Source: Halomicrobium zhouii (GTDB taxonomy: Archaea > Halobacteriota > Halobacteria > Halobacteriales > Haloarculaceae). From it: a DNA stretch of 64,000 nt. Both the position numbers and the translations under genes were made by a program. Every line of letters starts with the position of its first letter. Position 1 is the first letter of the stretch. Below the pieces are notes generated by a model that made no database searches, was not told the DNA's origin, and worked only from the letters and a program-made list of their open reading frames with translations. The DNA lies in contig NZ_FOZK01000002.1 in assembly GCF_900114435.1 (NCBI RefSeq), forward strand, positions 372,001-436,000, read 5' to 3'. Positions 28,015 through 33,833 of this stretch are shown one piece after another.

Positions 28015-28599
28015 CTACGCGCCTTCTTCGAGGCGTTCGTACCGGTCCTCGAACCGGCCCTGGCACGACGGGCAACAGAAGTGGTACACCTGGCCGTCGA
28101 CCCGCGTCGAGGAGCCCTCGCTGTCGACGGTGTTGCCGCACTCGGCGCAGGTGAGCGCGAACTCGGCGCCGTCGAGCGACGGGTGCCAGGAGACGTCGTC
28201 CATCAGCGTCACCGCGTAGTCGGCGCCGGCGTCGCCGAGCAGCCCGTCGACCCACTGGCGGACGTTCTCGACCTGTGCGCGGGCGTAGAACCACACCTCG
28301 CCGTCGGCGGTGACGAACACGTGCTCGACGGCGTTCGCCTCGCCGACCCGCTCGCGTAGCGCGTCGACGTCGGCGGCGCCGCGGACCTGGACGAACACCG
28401 GGACGCCGGCGTGTAGCTGCGACCGGTCGACGTCGACGGTGAACCGCTCGACGACGCCCGCCTCCCGGAGTCTGGTCACCCGGTCCGAGACCGCCGGCCC
28501 CGACAGACCGACCGCGTCGCCGATGTCGCTGAAGGGCCGCCGGGCGTCCTCGGCGAGGTACCGCAGGATCTCCACGTCCGTCTCGTCGAACTCTCGCAT
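28015..28599 (-). CDS. Lrp/AsnC-type copper-responsive regulator with TRASH domain
   Basis: 194 residues. N-terminal winged helix of the Lrp/AsnC type (MREFDETDVEILRYLAEDAR; recognition part GLSGPAVSDRVTRLREAGVV), a middle ligand-binding-like region, and a C-terminal TRASH domain with paired cysteines CAECG and FCCPSC (about 152-180) expected to bind metal. In Halobacterium a protein of this architecture controls a copper ATPase gene, and here the gene sits directly upstream of copA. It probably senses Cu and activates copA. A TATA-like ATATAT lies 22-30 bases before its ATG, implying a leaderless transcript. Confidence 0.88.
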   Translation of the reverse strand: MREFDETDVEILRYLAEDARRPFSDIGDAVGLSGPAVSDRVTRLREAGVVERFTVDVDRSQLHAGVPVFVQVRGAADVDALRERVGEANAVEHVFVTADGEVWFYARAQVENVRQWVDGLLGDAGADYAVTLMDDVSWHPSLDGAEFALTCAECGNTVDSEGSSTRVDGQVYHFCCPSCQGRFEDRYERLEEGA

Positions 28600-28727: not shown

Positions 28728-28925
28728 ATGAGCGAAACTATCACCGTCGAAGGGATGTCCTGCGAACACTGCGAGCAGACCGTCGCGGAGGCGCTCGAGG
28801 GCGTCGACGGCGTGACCGACGTCTCCGTCGACCGCGAGGCCGAGACGGCGACGGTCGAGGGCGACGCCGACACCGGGTCGCTCGTCGCGGCCGTCGACGA
28901 CGCCGGGTACGACGCCTCGGCCTGA
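28728..28925 (+). CDS. copZ: CopZ-like copper chaperone (single HMA domain)
   Basis: 65 residues forming one heavy-metal-associated ferredoxin-like domain with GMSCEHC (Cys12 and Cys15) and a closing DDAGYDA motif. Cytosolic. Proteins of this kind carry Cu(I) to CopA or to the regulator. It is divergent from the TRASH regulator and close to copA, which supports the copper assignment; other soft metals are possible. The following 130 bases are an ordinary convergent gap. Confidence 0.85.
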   Translation: MSETITVEGMSCEHCEQTVAEALEGVDGVTDVSVDREAETATVEGDADTGSLVAAVDDAGYDASA

Positions 28926-29058: not shown

Positions 29059-29556
29059 TCACCCCGAGCCCGTCGCCCGCTCGCGCTGGGGGTGTTCGTG
29101 GTGTGTGACAGTTCCCGCGACGGCGGTCGCCCCCTCGTCGCGGAGCAGCGCGGTTATCTCGTCGACCCGGTGGTCGGGGACTGTGACGGCGACCCGGGGG
29201 TCGTCGGTGGACGGCGCCTCGCGGAACGTTCCGACGACTCCCCCGACGAACCCGCCGACGGCGACGCCGAGACCGAGTCCGAGGAAGACGAGCGCGTACG
29301 GGCCGGCGGTCATGATCGGGCTGATCCGCGGGACCCAGAACACGTTCGCCTCCAGGCCGAGCAGCAGGAGCGCCCCGACCAGGCCGCCGACCGCGGCGCC
29401 CCACCGGAGCCCTCGTTCCTCGGGCATCGTCGTGGTCGGGTCGAAGAAGGGGTTGTCGTACGCTGGCTCCTCGGGCTCGACGTCCGCCTCCCGGAGGGCG
29501 TCACTGGCCGACTGGCTCGCCGCTTCGTCCGCGAAGGTTGCGACGAGTCGCTTCAT
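29059..29556 (-). CDS. Glycine-zipper-like small membrane protein
   Basis: 165 residues. N-terminal region with a ferredoxin-like feel (MKRLVATFADEAASQSASDALREADV), two transmembrane helices rich in Gly (GAAVGGLVGALLLLGL and LGLGLGVAVGGFVGGVVG), and a C-terminal segment DPRVAVTVPDHRVDEITALLRDEGA similar to the N-terminal one, so the two soluble parts may pack together. Its ATG overlaps the stop of the upstream CWB2-type gene (ATGA), giving the third gene of a coupled operon. Function unknown. Confidence 0.7.
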   Translation of the reverse strand: MKRLVATFADEAASQSASDALREADVEPEEPAYDNPFFDPTTTMPEERGLRWGAAVGGLVGALLLLGLEANVFWVPRISPIMTAGPYALVFLGLGLGVAVGGFVGGVVGTFREAPSTDDPRVAVTVPDHRVDEITALLRDEGATAVAGTVTHHEHPQRERATGSG

Positions 29557-30776
29557 CCGTCACCACCTGGCTCCTGTAACAGGGCGTGGAGTCGCGCCTG
29601 GACCCGTGGGTCGATCTGGTCGGTGTCGCCGACGACCCAGCCGTGGTTGTACTTGCGGTCGTAGGGCGCCGCCTCGTGGGGGCGCGTGAGGTCCGAGAGG
29701 TACCGCTCGACGTTCGAGGGGACCGACCCCTGCTCGACGAGGAGCATCGGCCCGTGTTTCCCGCGGTGGCTCTCGACGCAGGCCGGCAGGGCGATCCGCC
29801 AGTGCTCGGGGTTCGCGAAGATGAAGTTGTGCCCGCTCTCGGCGATCCCCCAGCCGATCTTGCGAGGCCACTCGCCGAACACCCACCCCTGGTTCCGGCC
29901 GACGTCGCGGTACCCGGCGAAGGCGGTGCTGAGCGTGTAGGGGTCGCCGGCGTTCGGGATCCGCTGGACGTGGCCGAACTGCGCGAGGTCGCGGGCCACT
30001 CCCTCGTCGATGGCGTCTTCGTCGCCCAGCAGGTACACGTAGGCCTCGTCGAAACGCGCTTCCAGCTGTCGCCGCGTCGGTCGGGGGATCCGGTCGCCGT
30101 CGACGTAGAGGAAACCGTCGCCGCCGTGGGCGTTCCAGGACTGGGCCGGGATCGCCCGCCGCAGGTCGTCGAGGTCGGCGACGAAGACGGTGTCACGGTG
30201 GTTCGCGTGGACGGTGCTGAGGTACTGGTCGCCGTTGGCGGCGACCTCGACGGGCGTCTCACCACCGATCCGGCTCGTCTTCAGCCCCATGTCCCGGACG
30301 GTCTGCTCGACGTCGGCGGAGACGTAGCGCTCGCCGCCGACGAGGTACACCTGGACGTTCCCGTCGACGGTGACGCCCTCCGGGTGGAGCCGCTCGATCT
30401 CGGCGCGCGTCGCGGCCGGCAGCGAGTCGCGCTCCGTCAGCAGGACGGCGCCGTCGATCGGGTGGTGGATCACCGCGACGCCGGGGAGCGCGGCCGCCAG
30501 TTCGCTGTCGTTTATCAGGATCGCCGCCCCGGGTCGGGTGTGCTCGTTGATCGCGGTGTAGACCGTCTGGGTAATCGCCGCCGCGGTCTCGTAGTCGCTT
30601 CGACCGGCGAGCCGAGTAGTCATCGTCGTGGCGGTCCACTCGCCGAAGTCGTCGGACTCGGGACCCGCCTGGTTCTCGCGGCGCCCGGTCGCTGCCAGCG
30701 CCGCGCCAGCGACACCGGTCCCGACCGGCAGGGCCGCCAGGTCGCGCAGGAACGCGCGACGGCTCCGGTCGCTCAC
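29553..30776 (-). CDS. Tat-secreted CWB2-like (cell-wall-binding repeat 2) protein
   Basis: 407 residues from GTG 30776, overlapping the upstream stop as GTGA; the twin-arginine signal SDRSRRAFLRDL starts immediately, fixing the start. After the signal come repeated units of the CWB2 type: RLAGRSDYETAAAITQTVY, VYLVGGERYVSADVEQTV, and later AYVYLLGDEDAIDEGVARDL. This family binds anionic polymers on bacterial walls; in archaea without murein the ligand is unknown. The second half is similar to the ectodomain of the membrane protein encoded just upstream. Secreted and perhaps complexed with that protein. Confidence 0.75.
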   Translation of the reverse strand: MSDRSRRAFLRDLAALPVGTGVAGAALAATGRRENQAGPESDDFGEWTATTMTTRLAGRSDYETAAAITQTVYTAINEHTRPGAAILINDSELAAALPGVAVIHHPIDGAVLLTERDSLPAATRAEIERLHPEGVTVDGNVQVYLVGGERYVSADVEQTVRDMGLKTSRIGGETPVEVAANGDQYLSTVHANHRDTVFVADLDDLRRAIPAQSWNAHGGDGFLYVDGDRIPRPTRRQLEARFDEAYVYLLGDEDAIDEGVARDLAQFGHVQRIPNAGDPYTLSTAFAGYRDVGRNQGWVFGEWPRKIGWGIAESGHNFIFANPEHWRIALPACVESHRGKHGPMLLVEQGSVPSNVERYLSDLTRPHEAAPYDRKYNHGWVVGDTDQIDPRVQARLHALLQEPGGDG

Positions 30777-32557
30777 AGCGCACCACCCGGCTTGCGGCGC
30801 TGCCTGACGAGCCGGCCGTTGACCGGCATCGCGACGACGAACCCGACGAGCGTGGCGAACACCATCACGCCGAACCAGAGGATGTTGTCGTCGCCGGGCA
30901 TCATCGGGAGGTTGAGCATCATCAGTCCCCACATGCCGCCCATCATGCCGATCGAGACGCTCGTCATGCTCACCGCGACGAGCTTCGCGCCCTCGCGGAT
31001 CGCCTCGCCGGTGTCGAGCCCGCGGGAGTCCCTGAGCATCGGGACGTGGAAGATTAGCCACGAGACGAGGAAGGCGACGGCGTAGACGAGGACGATGAGC
31101 ACCGTCATGGCGTTCCCCAGCCAGAACAGCGGGCCGTCGAGGACGACCATGGGGATGCCGACGTAGTTGAGCAGGAACGCCGTCGCGATCATCGTACTCG
31201 CGGCGAACCCGACGCCCATCGCCGTCGCCGTGGCCGCCCGGAGCCAGTACGGTCGGAGCACGCGCGGGCCGTCCTCCGTCTCGACGACCTGCCTGCCCCG
31301 GTAGGCGAGCCAGTAGAGGGCGAAGCCGAACGGGCCGAGCAGGAGCGTCGTCAGCGGCCACACCATCTTCGTCCAGCTGTTCGCCTCGGGAATGCGGTGG
31401 CGCACGTGCGCGAACACGAACGTCGTGCCGAGGAGGCTAAATCCCGCCCACACCGCCGCGACGGCCTCGAGCGGACTGAGCCCCGCCCCCTGGTGACGGT
31501 ACTGCGTGATCTCGACCGCGTAGTCCAGCCGACCCTGGGAGACCCAGGAGACCTCGTCCGTCGTCCCCATGGCGAACACGTGGTTGAACGGTCCCTCCGC
31601 GGGCGTCGAGAACCACGCCGGCTGGGTCTGCCAGGCGTAGTTCTCGGTGACGGCCGGCAGGCTCCCGTCCTCGTGGACCAGCAGGACGGGGCCGGCCTTC
31701 CCCCACTGGAGGTTCGCCGCCGAGACCGCGTGGGCCGGTTCGCCGGGGTTCACCAGCACGAAGTTGTAGTAGCCGACCTTGTCGCGCTCGTGGATGCCCC
31801 AGCCGAAGTCGCGGGACTCGTCGCGGAACTCGGCGACTTCGACGGCGTGGGACTGGGGCGTCTGGCCGGCGACCCGGGTCCACTCGACGCCGAGGTTCGA
31901 CAGCGCGTCGTCGCCGATCAGCGACGGCGGCGCGAGGACGTAGGCGTGAGACGCCCCGAGTTCGTCGATCGCTCGCCGGGTCGCGTCCGGGACGCCGTCG
32001 TCGTTCGCGTAGAGGATCGGGTCCCCGGAGTACGCGCTCCAGGCCGCGGCGGGCAGCGCCCACCGGGGCGCCCCGGAACTCACCACGACGACGTTGTTCG
32101 GGCTCACATCGTCGGCGCCGCCGCCGCGGGTCGCGAGGGCGGCGGCCGTCTCGGCGGGCGACTCGCCGGCGGCCGCCGCGTCGATCGTCGTGGCGTTCGT
32201 CCCGTTCGCGCTCCCCGGCGGCGCCGCGTCCCCGTAGAGGAGGACGGCGTCGTCGCTCGCGCGGAGGTGCGTGGCCGCCAGCGCGGTCCGCCAGTCACCG
32301 CCCGGAACCCTGACGACGGTCGAGTAGTTCAGGCCCGACCCGGGCGGTCGCGCCGCCCGCGCCGTGAGTTCGCTCTGTCGCGCCGGGTCGGCGACCGGGA
32401 ACCTGGTCACGTCCTTCGTCTGTACCGTCGCGTACGAACCGTTCGGCGCCTCCCCGTAGTCGAACAGGGTCAGCGCGACGACGTACAGCGGTTGCGTCGC
32501 CACGAGGATCGTTACCAGCGCAGCGGTGCCGATCGCTATCGTCTTCCAGCGGTCCAT
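30773..32557 (-). CDS. Membrane protein: CWB2-like ectodomain fused to Met-rich DUF4396-like membrane domain
   Basis: 594 residues from ATG 32557. One N-terminal helix (about 6-30), a large outside domain (31-360) with CWB2-like units (NNVVVVSSGAPRWALPAAAW, ASHAYVLAPPSLIGDDALSNLG), then five or six helices. The final helices include SVSIGMMGGMWGLMMLNLPM, unusually rich in Met, and resemble DUF4396 as I remember it. Methionine clusters in membranes often coordinate Cu(I) or Ag(I), and the copper genes lie 2-5 kb away, but a metal role is only a suggestion. First gene of a three-gene operon joined by 4-base overlaps. Confidence 0.7.
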   Translation of the reverse strand: MDRWKTIAIGTAALVTILVATQPLYVVALTLFDYGEAPNGSYATVQTKDVTRFPVADPARQSELTARAARPPGSGLNYSTVVRVPGGDWRTALAATHLRASDDAVLLYGDAAPPGSANGTNATTIDAAAAGESPAETAAALATRGGGADDVSPNNVVVVSSGAPRWALPAAAWSAYSGDPILYANDDGVPDATRRAIDELGASHAYVLAPPSLIGDDALSNLGVEWTRVAGQTPQSHAVEVAEFRDESRDFGWGIHERDKVGYYNFVLVNPGEPAHAVSAANLQWGKAGPVLLVHEDGSLPAVTENYAWQTQPAWFSTPAEGPFNHVFAMGTTDEVSWVSQGRLDYAVEITQYRHQGAGLSPLEAVAAVWAGFSLLGTTFVFAHVRHRIPEANSWTKMVWPLTTLLLGPFGFALYWLAYRGRQVVETEDGPRVLRPYWLRAATATAMGVGFAASTMIATAFLLNYVGIPMVVLDGPLFWLGNAMTVLIVLVYAVAFLVSWLIFHVPMLRDSRGLDTGEAIREGAKLVAVSMTSVSIGMMGGMWGLMMLNLPMMPGDDNILWFGVMVFATLVGFVVAMPVNGRLVRQRRKPGGAL

Positions 32558-32916: not shown

Positions 32917-33222
32917 GTGACCGATACCATCGTCCACGCCCTCGGGATTCCCTTCGCGACCGTCACCGGCGCGGCCGCGGGCGTCCTCGCAGTGCTGTCG
33001 TGGCAGCTCTTCCGCGAGTCCCCCTTCGGTCGGGCCGTCGCGCTCCTCTCGGTCGTCGCGTCCGTGATCACGTTCTACCACGTGTTGCTCCTCGCCCTCG
33101 GGTCCGAGACGTTCGTCCTGCAGGCGCTCCGGAGCGGCGTCAACACCGTTATCGCAGGCGTGCTCCTGCTGGTCGTTCACGAGCACCGACGCCTCCGGCG
33201 CGACCGGACGGCGGACCGATAG
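32917..33222 (+). CDS. Small membrane protein paired with membrane-bound HTH regulator
   Basis: 101 residues from GTG 32917, the start nearest to the first helix. Three hydrophobic segments (about 10-26, 35-55 and 70-85) and a basic C terminus (HEHRRLRRDRTADR). It ends two bases before the ATG of a membrane protein with a winged helix, so the two genes are probably co-transcribed. A second small membrane protein/winged-helix pair occurs at 53073-53757. No enzymatic motif. It may modulate its partner. Confidence 0.6.
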   Translation: MTDTIVHALGIPFATVTGAAAGVLAVLSWQLFRESPFGRAVALLSVVASVITFYHVLLLALGSETFVLQALRSGVNTVIAGVLLLVVHEHRRLRRDRTADR

Positions 33223-33224
33223 CG

Positions 33225-33833
33225 ATGGCGCCGCTCACGGCGTTCCAGGCGTACAACCTCGTGATCGGCCTCGTCGTCGGGGCCGAACTCGTCTACCTGC
33301 TCCGCGCCGAATCTGCCGTCACGGGCTATCGCCGGTTCATGCTCGTCACCGTCTTCGGGGTCGTCACCTTCGTCGTGGCCGGCCCGGTCGCCGAGGTGCT
33401 CGCCCCGTCCCTGGTCCACTGGGTCCACGGCGTCGGCGCGCTCCTCGTCGTGCTGGGACTGTACAGTCCCGTCCGGAACGACCTCCGCACCGAAGGGTGG
33501 GCGCGCGTGCTGCTGTGTGACCCGTCCCAGATCCGTTCACCGGCAGACTGGATGCGGCCGATGGACGACGCCATCCTGGAACTGTTTCACTCCTCGGAGC
33601 TCGTTCTCACGCCCGCCGTCGTCGCGCTGAACATCGACCGCAGCCGGGAGGCGGTCAATCGCCGGCTGACCGCCCTGGCGGACCGTGACCTCGTCGAACG
33701 CGTCGAGCGGGGGAAGTACCGTCTGACGCCGCTCGGAGAGCAGTACCTCCGGGGACGGCTTCACGTGTCGATGCTGACTCGGCAGGGAAAGGAGTCGAAT
33801 CGCCCAGAGCGTGAACCGCCAGCGGAGCGGTGA
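33225..33833 (+). CDS. Membrane-bound winged-helix transcription regulator
   Basis: 202 residues. Three transmembrane helices (about 5-23, 35-60 and 65-80) are followed by a cytosolic winged helix-turn-helix: MDDAILELFHSSELVLTPAV, then DRSREAVNRRLTALADRDLV and the wing VERVERGKYRLTPLGEQYL. It probably senses a membrane or envelope signal and binds DNA directly, a one-component design frequent in haloarchaea. It follows the small membrane protein by two bases. Target genes cannot be inferred. Confidence 0.75.
   Translation: MAPLTAFQAYNLVIGLVVGAELVYLLRAESAVTGYRRFMLVTVFGVVTFVVAGPVAEVLAPSLVHWVHGVGALLVVLGLYSPVRNDLRTEGWARVLLCDPSQIRSPADWMRPMDDAILELFHSSELVLTPAVVALNIDRSREAVNRRLTALADRDLVERVERGKYRLTPLGEQYLRGRLHVSMLTRQGKESNRPEREPPAER

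What the first reader, a model, noticed from the sequence alone, without database searches (positions are those of the whole stretch)
29059..32557. Coupled operon of two paralogous CWB2-like ectodomains with a Met-rich membrane module
Seen: three genes with ATGA/GTGA overlaps. The membrane protein's outside domain (AW.AY.GDPILYANDDGVPDATRRAI..YVLAP) matches the second half of the Tat-secreted protein (SWNAHGGDGFLYVDGD..). The last helices contain eight Met within about 20 residues (IGMMGGMWGLMMLNLPMM). Copper genes lie close by. Inferred: a two-part envelope complex, perhaps handling copper or binding a surface polymer.
Basis: partly seen in the sequence, partly recalled or inferred. Interest (0 to 1): 0.52.

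Follow-up and report, generated by a model that had tools for sequence, protein, structure and literature searches.

The report
Paired envelope proteins beside copper genes
A salt-loving archaeon carries three tightly coupled genes for a likely metal-handling pair on the cell surface, built from a protein shape known from the Clostridioides difficile surface coat; the same gene set recurs in other archaea and in one bacterium, usually but not always next to copper-resistance genes.

Summary
In detail: a minus-strand operon (29059-32557) with 4-base overlaps encodes a membrane protein (P0003: CWB2 ectodomain plus Met-rich DUF4396 module), a Tat-type secreted CWB2 paralogue (P0002) and a small two-helix membrane protein (P0001). 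It lies beside a copper P-type ATPase, a TRASH-Lrp regulator and an HMA chaperone. The operon is a real, conserved, mobile unit: 12 haloarchaeal copies, two copies on one Pontibacter plasmid, and a two-gene form in five archaeal genomes outside Halobacteria. P0002 is confidently modelled as a C. difficile-type CWB2 triad (Cwp6: Z 36.7, rmsd 2.2 over 304 residues). All 21 aligned full-length P0002 relatives keep five His that the P0003 ectodomain lacks at four of the five positions; three sit at the end of the helix that forms the triad's core. P0003's module has Met where ordinary DUF4396 proteins conserve Cys, Asp and Ser. Metal genes lie within 10 kb in 10 of 10 sampled haloarchaeal copies, but none were found near the five non-haloarchaeal archaeal copies. 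Best reading: an envelope copper-handling pair. Metal binding, direction and ectodomain contact are untested.

The parts
30773..32557 (-). P0003, 594 aa: N-terminal TM, CWB2-type ectodomain (about residues 30-350), C-terminal membrane part ending in DUF4396
31508..32470 (-). CWB2-type ectodomain of P0003 (approximate); lacks the five His of P0002
30791..31246 (-). DUF4396 membrane module of P0003 (residues 438-589)
   Evidence: Met replacement relative to short DUF4396:
30899..30967 (-). Met cluster, residues 531-553 (8 Met)
29553..30776 (-). P0002, 407 aa, GTG start, RR signal (SRRAFLRD), CWB2 triad with His 104, 105, 217, 316, 337, 341
29059..29556 (-). P0001, 165 aa, small glycine-rich two-helix membrane protein; HHEHP near its C-terminus; third gene of the operon
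28728..28925 (+). HMA-domain protein (CopZ-like chaperone)
28015..28599 (-). Lrp-type regulator with C-terminal TRASH domain (HVO_1752 type)
   Evidence: related system described in PMC3551603
25271..27928 (-). P1B-type heavy-metal ATPase; copper subfamily scores above cadmium subfamily (562 against 406 bits)
33000..33833 (+). divergent helix-turn-helix gene; relatives lie near the operon in 4 of 10 loci (cluster 3, window included); regulator role inferred only

Best explanation
An envelope metal-handling pair, in haloarchaea most likely for copper as part of copper resistance. P0002 is exported (Tat type in haloarchaea; a lipoprotein in the bacterial relatives) and binds the metal outside the membrane, probably at a His site near the pseudo-threefold axis of its CWB2 triad. 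P0003 carries a matching but His-less CWB2 triad that docks P0002 to the membrane, and its DUF4396 part, with Met in place of the Cys/Asp/Ser of ordinary DUF4396 proteins, forms a soft-metal path or buffer in the membrane. P0001 is a small accessory subunit. Shown: operon, paralogy, modelled fold of P0002, residue conservation, gene linkage. Inferred: metal binding, docking, transport and its direction (removal or sequestration is preferred because the neighbours are export and storage genes).
For: Overlap of -4 between genes 1 and 2 in 14 of 14 three-gene copies and between genes 2 and 3 in 13 of 14. Five His (104, 217, 316, 337, 341) in 21 of 21 aligned P0002-type proteins; at 104, 217, 337 and 341 none of 19 P0003-type ectodomains has His. 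His 104, 217 and 337 lie at or just after the end of the second helix of each repeat, which by my count of the published numbering is the helix forming the core bundle of the triad (passages of PMC8881574). Met 447, 456, 507, 531 and 538 are kept in all 10 rows compared from haloarchaea, Pontibacter and five other archaea, whereas at 447, 531 and 547 short DUF4396 proteins have Cys 34/34, Ser 33/34 and Asp 34/34. Metal ATPase, HMA or DUF326 within 10 kb: 9 of 10 copies by genome search, expected 0.53 genome-wide and 2.74 on the same contig; the tenth has a DUF326 gene just upstream. All 7 plasmid records with the P0002 family have metal genes within about 10 kb. The window's neighbours match the Halobacterium copper efflux network (passages of PMC3551603).
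Against: No recognised metal gene within about 9 kb of the five copies outside Halobacteria (the contig of one ends about 4 kb past the pair). One of the two Pontibacter copies has no annotated copper gene within about 9 kb. Two plasmid relatives sit by Zn/Cd-type ATPases, and one of these (L067) is truncated and lacks His at 104 and 217. Part of the Met run (539, 542, 547, 552) is not kept in the archaea outside Halobacteria, and one haloarchaeal copy has Ile at 447. The ten copies are related, so the P values overstate independence. No shared sequence was found between the upstream regions of the operon and the copper genes. Operon-bearing genomes have only slightly more heavy-metal ATPases than others (p 0.063).
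Confidence: 0.5

Rival explanations
1. Cell-surface anchoring: the CWB2 triads bind a surface glycan or the S-layer, as in C. difficile, and the operon strengthens or repairs the envelope under metal or other stress without binding metal.
For: Fold and Pfam family are those of C. difficile surface anchors. CWB2 repeats bind PSII there (passages of PMC4973711). Solirubrobacterales relatives without the His and without DUF4396 exist.
Against: The five invariant His and the Met pattern are unexplained. The conserved P[ILV][ILV][LV] motif is only partly kept (AVLL, FLYV, PMLL). Tight pairing with DUF4396 and copper genes is not expected for an anchor.
Confidence: 0.22
2. A metal pair not specific for copper: His site for Zn, Cd, Ni or another metal, with copper-gene linkage reflecting residence on multi-metal resistance islands.
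For: Zn/Cd-type ATPases near the Geobacillus, P. cellulositrophicus and G320 copies; ArsP-type permease in one haloarchaeal locus; no copper genes by the copies outside Halobacteria.
Against: Met enrichment favours soft Cu(I)/Ag(I); DUF326 four-helix proteins, HMA proteins and Cu-type ATPases are the commonest metal neighbours.
Confidence: 0.18
3. Copper uptake or delivery to exported copper proteins rather than removal.
For: An extracytoplasmic binding protein plus membrane partner is a common plan of importers (general knowledge); multicopper oxidases occur near some copies and near short DUF4396 genes.
Against: Neighbours are mostly export and storage genes; no ATPase or other energy-coupling domain was recognised inside the operon.
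Confidence: 0.1

Closest known systems
C. difficile CWB2 triad proteins (SlpA SLPH, Cwp6, Cwp8; Pfam PF04122)
   Same: Three (beta-alpha)4 repeats forming one triad; Cwp6 Z 36.7, rmsd 2.2 over 304 residues, 17% identity
   Different: Five invariant His, export by Tat or as lipoprotein, pairing with a membrane paralogue, copper-gene neighbours; hosts include archaea
DUF4396 proteins (Pfam PF14342), short form mostly 225-340 aa
   Same: Same Pfam domain; also often near copper genes: 9 of 20 checked loci
   Different: Short form conserves Cys/Glu/Asp/Ser at positions that are Met or non-polar in the long form; no CWB2 ectodomain seen
Halobacterium copper efflux network (VNG0700G/yvgX, VNG1179C, VNG0702H)
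   Same: P1B ATPase, TRASH-Lrp regulator and HMA chaperone next to the operon
   Different: That published set, as far as the passages read say, has no CWB2 or DUF4396 part
DUF326 four-helix bundle copper proteins (Csp type)
   Same: Lie within about 1 kb upstream of 5 of 10 haloarchaeal operons and near one Pontibacter copy
   Different: A neighbour, not a relative of any operon protein

Membership tests
CWB2 (PF04122) | Profile score above the curated cut-off | tested here: met
   P0002 45.3, P0003 31.6 against 24.9 bits
CWB2 (PF04122) | Three tandem repeats folded as a pseudo-threefold triad | tested here: met
   P0002 model: three (beta-alpha)4 units; C. difficile CWB2 chains fill the top rows. 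P0003 ectodomain weaker
CWB2 (PF04122) | P[ILV][ILV][LV] motif in each repeat | tested here: inconclusive
   P0002 reads AVLL, FLYV, PMLL; motif from PMC4973711 passages
CWB2 (PF04122) | Binding of cell-wall polymer PSII | not testable with these tools
   no binding data
DUF4396 (PF14342) | Profile score above the curated cut-off over the whole domain | tested here: met
   73.1 against 27 bits, positions 2-141 of 141
short DUF4396 subgroup | Conserved acidic residues of the short form | tested here: not met
   Glu/Asp/Glu/Asp at P0003 positions 451, 527, 532, 547 in 34 of 34 short proteins; the long form has Phe, Val, Thr, Met there in 10 of 10
copper-handling system | Genetic linkage to metal genes, mostly of copper type | tested here: inconclusive
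   10 of 10 haloarchaeal copies; none recognised at 5 of 5 copies in other archaea
copper-handling system | Copper binding or copper phenotype | not testable with these tools
   needs experiment
two-part envelope complex | Contact between the two ectodomains | not tested

The most novel reading that the evidence does not exclude
The CWB2 triad, known as a glycan-anchoring fold of bacterial surface coats, has an old metalloprotein branch: a His site at the end of the central three-helix bundle captures copper outside the cell and exchanges it with a Met-lined DUF4396 membrane conduit through a docked, His-less twin triad. This pair was inherited and transferred as a unit between haloarchaea, other archaea and Bacteroidota and is an undescribed copper system.
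Probability: 0.33. Interest if true: 0.8.

Novelty: new variant of a known kind. Interest (0 to 1): 0.58.

Why it matters
It gives two unknowns, archaeal CWB2 proteins and DUF4396, one concrete and testable role. If P0002 binds copper through its triad His, a fold regarded as a wall anchor is also a metal site, and haloarchaea gain an envelope copper step outside the known ATPase, chaperone and regulator set.

Tried and rejected
Shared upstream motif between the operon and copA or copZ: best 15-mer matches no better than shuffles. More ATPases in operon genomes: 9 operon genomes against 38 others, one-sided p 0.063, not claimed. PHROGs: only three weak unknown families for P0002. Viral contigs with A5: none. 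PDB sequence search with the C-terminal membrane part of P0003: nothing. No fold is claimed for the DUF4396 part, because the model is poor there (mostly under pLDDT 70, much of it under 50). P0003 membrane topology was not settled: by my own count the number of helices and the positive C-terminus disagree.

Literature. DUF4396 is named in one held paper, of which one passage was read. No held paper has 'cell wall-binding repeat' with 'copper resistance', 'CW_binding_2' with 'copper', or two of 'DUF4396 domain', 'cell wall-binding repeat-containing' and 'Halomicrobium'. 'cell wall binding repeat' with 'copper' gave 12 papers, 10 listed; none was opened and none of the ten is on this subject by title. 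The library lacks most subscription journals. PMC8881574, PMC4973711 and PMC3551603 were seen as found passages only; the DUF326 papers as a search listing only.

Rows dropped. Of the 81 of 391 class genomes with DUF4396, the 10 long copies plus 23 short loci were fetched wide; only the 20 short loci entered the 9 of 20 count, and the other DUF4396 loci were not looked at beyond 1.5 kb or at all. L057 is the same contig as L046 by length and was counted once. L067 (truncated) was left out of the His count and of the trees. The P0002 partner in L097 was read by eye only, has all five His, and is not in the 21. L061 counts as a copy without annotated copper neighbours. The Embleya and second Clostridioides plasmid matches were not opened.
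Full report
WHAT IS THERE. P0003 comes first, then P0002 from a GTG that overlaps its stop by four bases, then P0001 from an ATG that overlaps the stop of P0002 by four bases. Pfam finds CWB2 in P0002 and P0003 and DUF4396 at the end of P0003; P0001 reaches no family cut-off. P0002 and P0003 align at 31% identity over 193 residues, E 8e-19. A CWB2 family search of the own genome finds only P0002. On one side lie an HMA protein, a TRASH-Lrp regulator and a copper-type P1B ATPase, the kind of set described for copper efflux in Halobacterium (passages of PMC3551603).

IT IS A CONSERVED, MOBILE UNIT. DUF4396 occurs in 81 of 391 genomes of the class. The ten copies of the long form, in 9 genomes including this one, were fetched (the own copy is in the window), and all ten have the same three genes in the same order. 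Two further haloarchaeal copies came from named genomes, Haloarcula amylovorans and Halosimplex aquaticum. Only one of six other genomes of the genus has it, in two copies. Two copies lie on named plasmids, of Halobaculum roseum and Halomicrobium urmianum. The Halobaculum and Haloarcula copies are identical in the compared proteins, which suggests recent transfer (that L048 is Halobaculum rests on equal contig length). The plasmid of Pontibacter actiniarum (Bacteroidota) carries two copies. A search of 392 genomes of the phylum found five more outside the class. In four of these the second gene was found by similarity search and in the fifth by reading the overlapping frame; no relative of the third gene was seen. 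In a tree of 42 ectodomains the 19 P0003-type and 18 P0002-type rows form two groups, each holding haloarchaeal, other archaeal and Pontibacter rows (support 99/99 and 95/94). So the duplication appears older than these transfers and the pair travels together. The small third protein of Pontibacter matches the haloarchaeal one (hhalign probability 97%).

FOLD. The P0002 model has mean pLDDT 79 and pTM 0.80, most of the ectodomain above 85. Its secondary structure is three (beta-alpha)4 repeats. All eleven Foldseek matches with E under 0.001 are C. difficile CWB2 chains; Cwp6 aligns with Z 36.7, rmsd 2.2 over 304 residues, far above the next unrelated row at Z 6.5. The P0003 model has mean pLDDT 64; its ectodomain finds the same chains (E 3e-8 to 9e-6), while the membrane part is too weak to interpret.

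HISTIDINES. Five His of P0002 (104, 217, 316, 337, 341) are present in 21 of 21 aligned relatives: 12 haloarchaeal, 4 from other archaea, 2 Pontibacter, 3 Bacilli plasmid proteins. Among the 19 P0003-type ectodomains none has His at 104, 217, 337 or 341, and 4 have it at 316. The two Solirubrobacterales relatives have none of the five. His 104, 105, 217, 337 and 341 all fall in the same corner of their repeats, at the end of the second helix or between it and the third strand. In the SlpA structure paper the core bundle is made of helices 3, 7 and 11; counting four helices per repeat from helix 2, these are the second helix of each repeat. That places the His near one end of the pseudo-threefold axis. 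This is inference; no distance was measured. The bacterial P0002 relatives begin like lipoproteins, and the Alkalihalophilus one has a His- and Met-rich linker.

METHIONINES. Of 34 aligned short DUF4396 proteins, 34 have Cys at P0003 position 447 and Asp at 547, and 33 have Ser at 531; of 10 long ones, 9, 10 and 10 have Met there. The register at 447 depends on the alignment: an earlier one with only 8 short proteins put His there. Met 447, 456, 507, 531 and 538 are kept in all ten rows compared, which span haloarchaea (3 rows), Pontibacter (2) and five other archaea (5); Met 539, 542, 547 and 552 are not.

METAL LINKAGE. Within 10 kb, 9 of 10 copies have a heavy-metal ATPase, an HMA protein or a DUF326 protein by genome search; 0.53 would be expected at random in the genomes and 2.74 on the same contigs, P 2e-11 and 2e-6. 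The tenth has a DUF326 gene just upstream that the genome search missed. The copies are related, so the P values are too small. DUF326 genes lie within about 1 kb upstream of 5 of 10; DUF326 appears in papers on copper storage proteins (listing). All 7 plasmid records with the P0002 family have metal genes within about 10 kb, two of them of Zn/Cd type. More distant CWB2 matches on a Clostridioides and a Euzebya plasmid have no annotated metal transporter nearby. Short DUF4396 genes have ATPase, HMA or DUF326 neighbours in 9 of 20 loci. Against this, none of the five copies outside Halobacteria shows a recognised metal gene nearby, nor does one of the two Pontibacter copies.

INTERPRETATION. 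The most economical reading is a metal-handling envelope pair: a secreted His-bearing triad, its His-less twin on the membrane, and a Met-rich membrane part. Copper fits the haloarchaeal and most bacterial settings. Removal or sequestration is favoured over uptake only by the neighbours. I rate this at 0.5. A plain surface anchor and a pair for another metal remain open.

NOVELTY. Each domain family is known, but I found no metal role on record for either in the held literature that I searched; one passage names DUF4396 at the edge of a heavy-metal resistance cluster. The combination is best called a new variant of the CWB2 kind.

Noticed in passing
L058 9467-10615 and L059 9476-10669: Solirubrobacterales-type MAGs carry single secreted CWB2 proteins related to the P0003 and P0002 ectodomains, without DUF4396 beside them and without the five His.
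   Followed up: partly
L016-L045, L070-L089: Short DUF4396 proteins show an HCxxGC..GE pattern in the rows printed and often sit beside DUF326, HMA, TRASH or multicopper oxidase genes; DUF4396 may be a copper-related family in general.
   Followed up: partly
L063 8710-10041: Alkalihalophilus pseudofirmus OF4 plasmid: CWB2 lipoprotein with His/Met-rich linker directly after copZ and a Cu-type ATPase.
   Followed up: partly
L067 8800-9675: Paenibacillus cellulositrophicus plasmid: truncated CWB2 relative lacking the His, between an ArsR/SmtB regulator and a Zn/Cd-type ATPase, near a PCYCGC protein.
   Followed up: no
L047 761-1750, L050 12281-13282, L052 4270-5271, L060 12633-13634, L064 24482-25483: Potassium-channel family genes recur near the operon in haloarchaea and Pontibacter.
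   Followed up: no
window 33000-33833: Divergent helix-turn-helix gene with relatives near the operon in 4 of 10 loci; possible regulator.
   Followed up: no
L093-L097: Two-gene form of the pair in five archaeal genomes outside Halobacteria with no recognised metal genes nearby; its substrate is unclear.
   Followed up: partly
window 29059-29556, near the C-terminus of the protein: HHEHP near the C-terminus of the small third protein in a subset of haloarchaeal copies; possible metal ligand.
   Followed up: no
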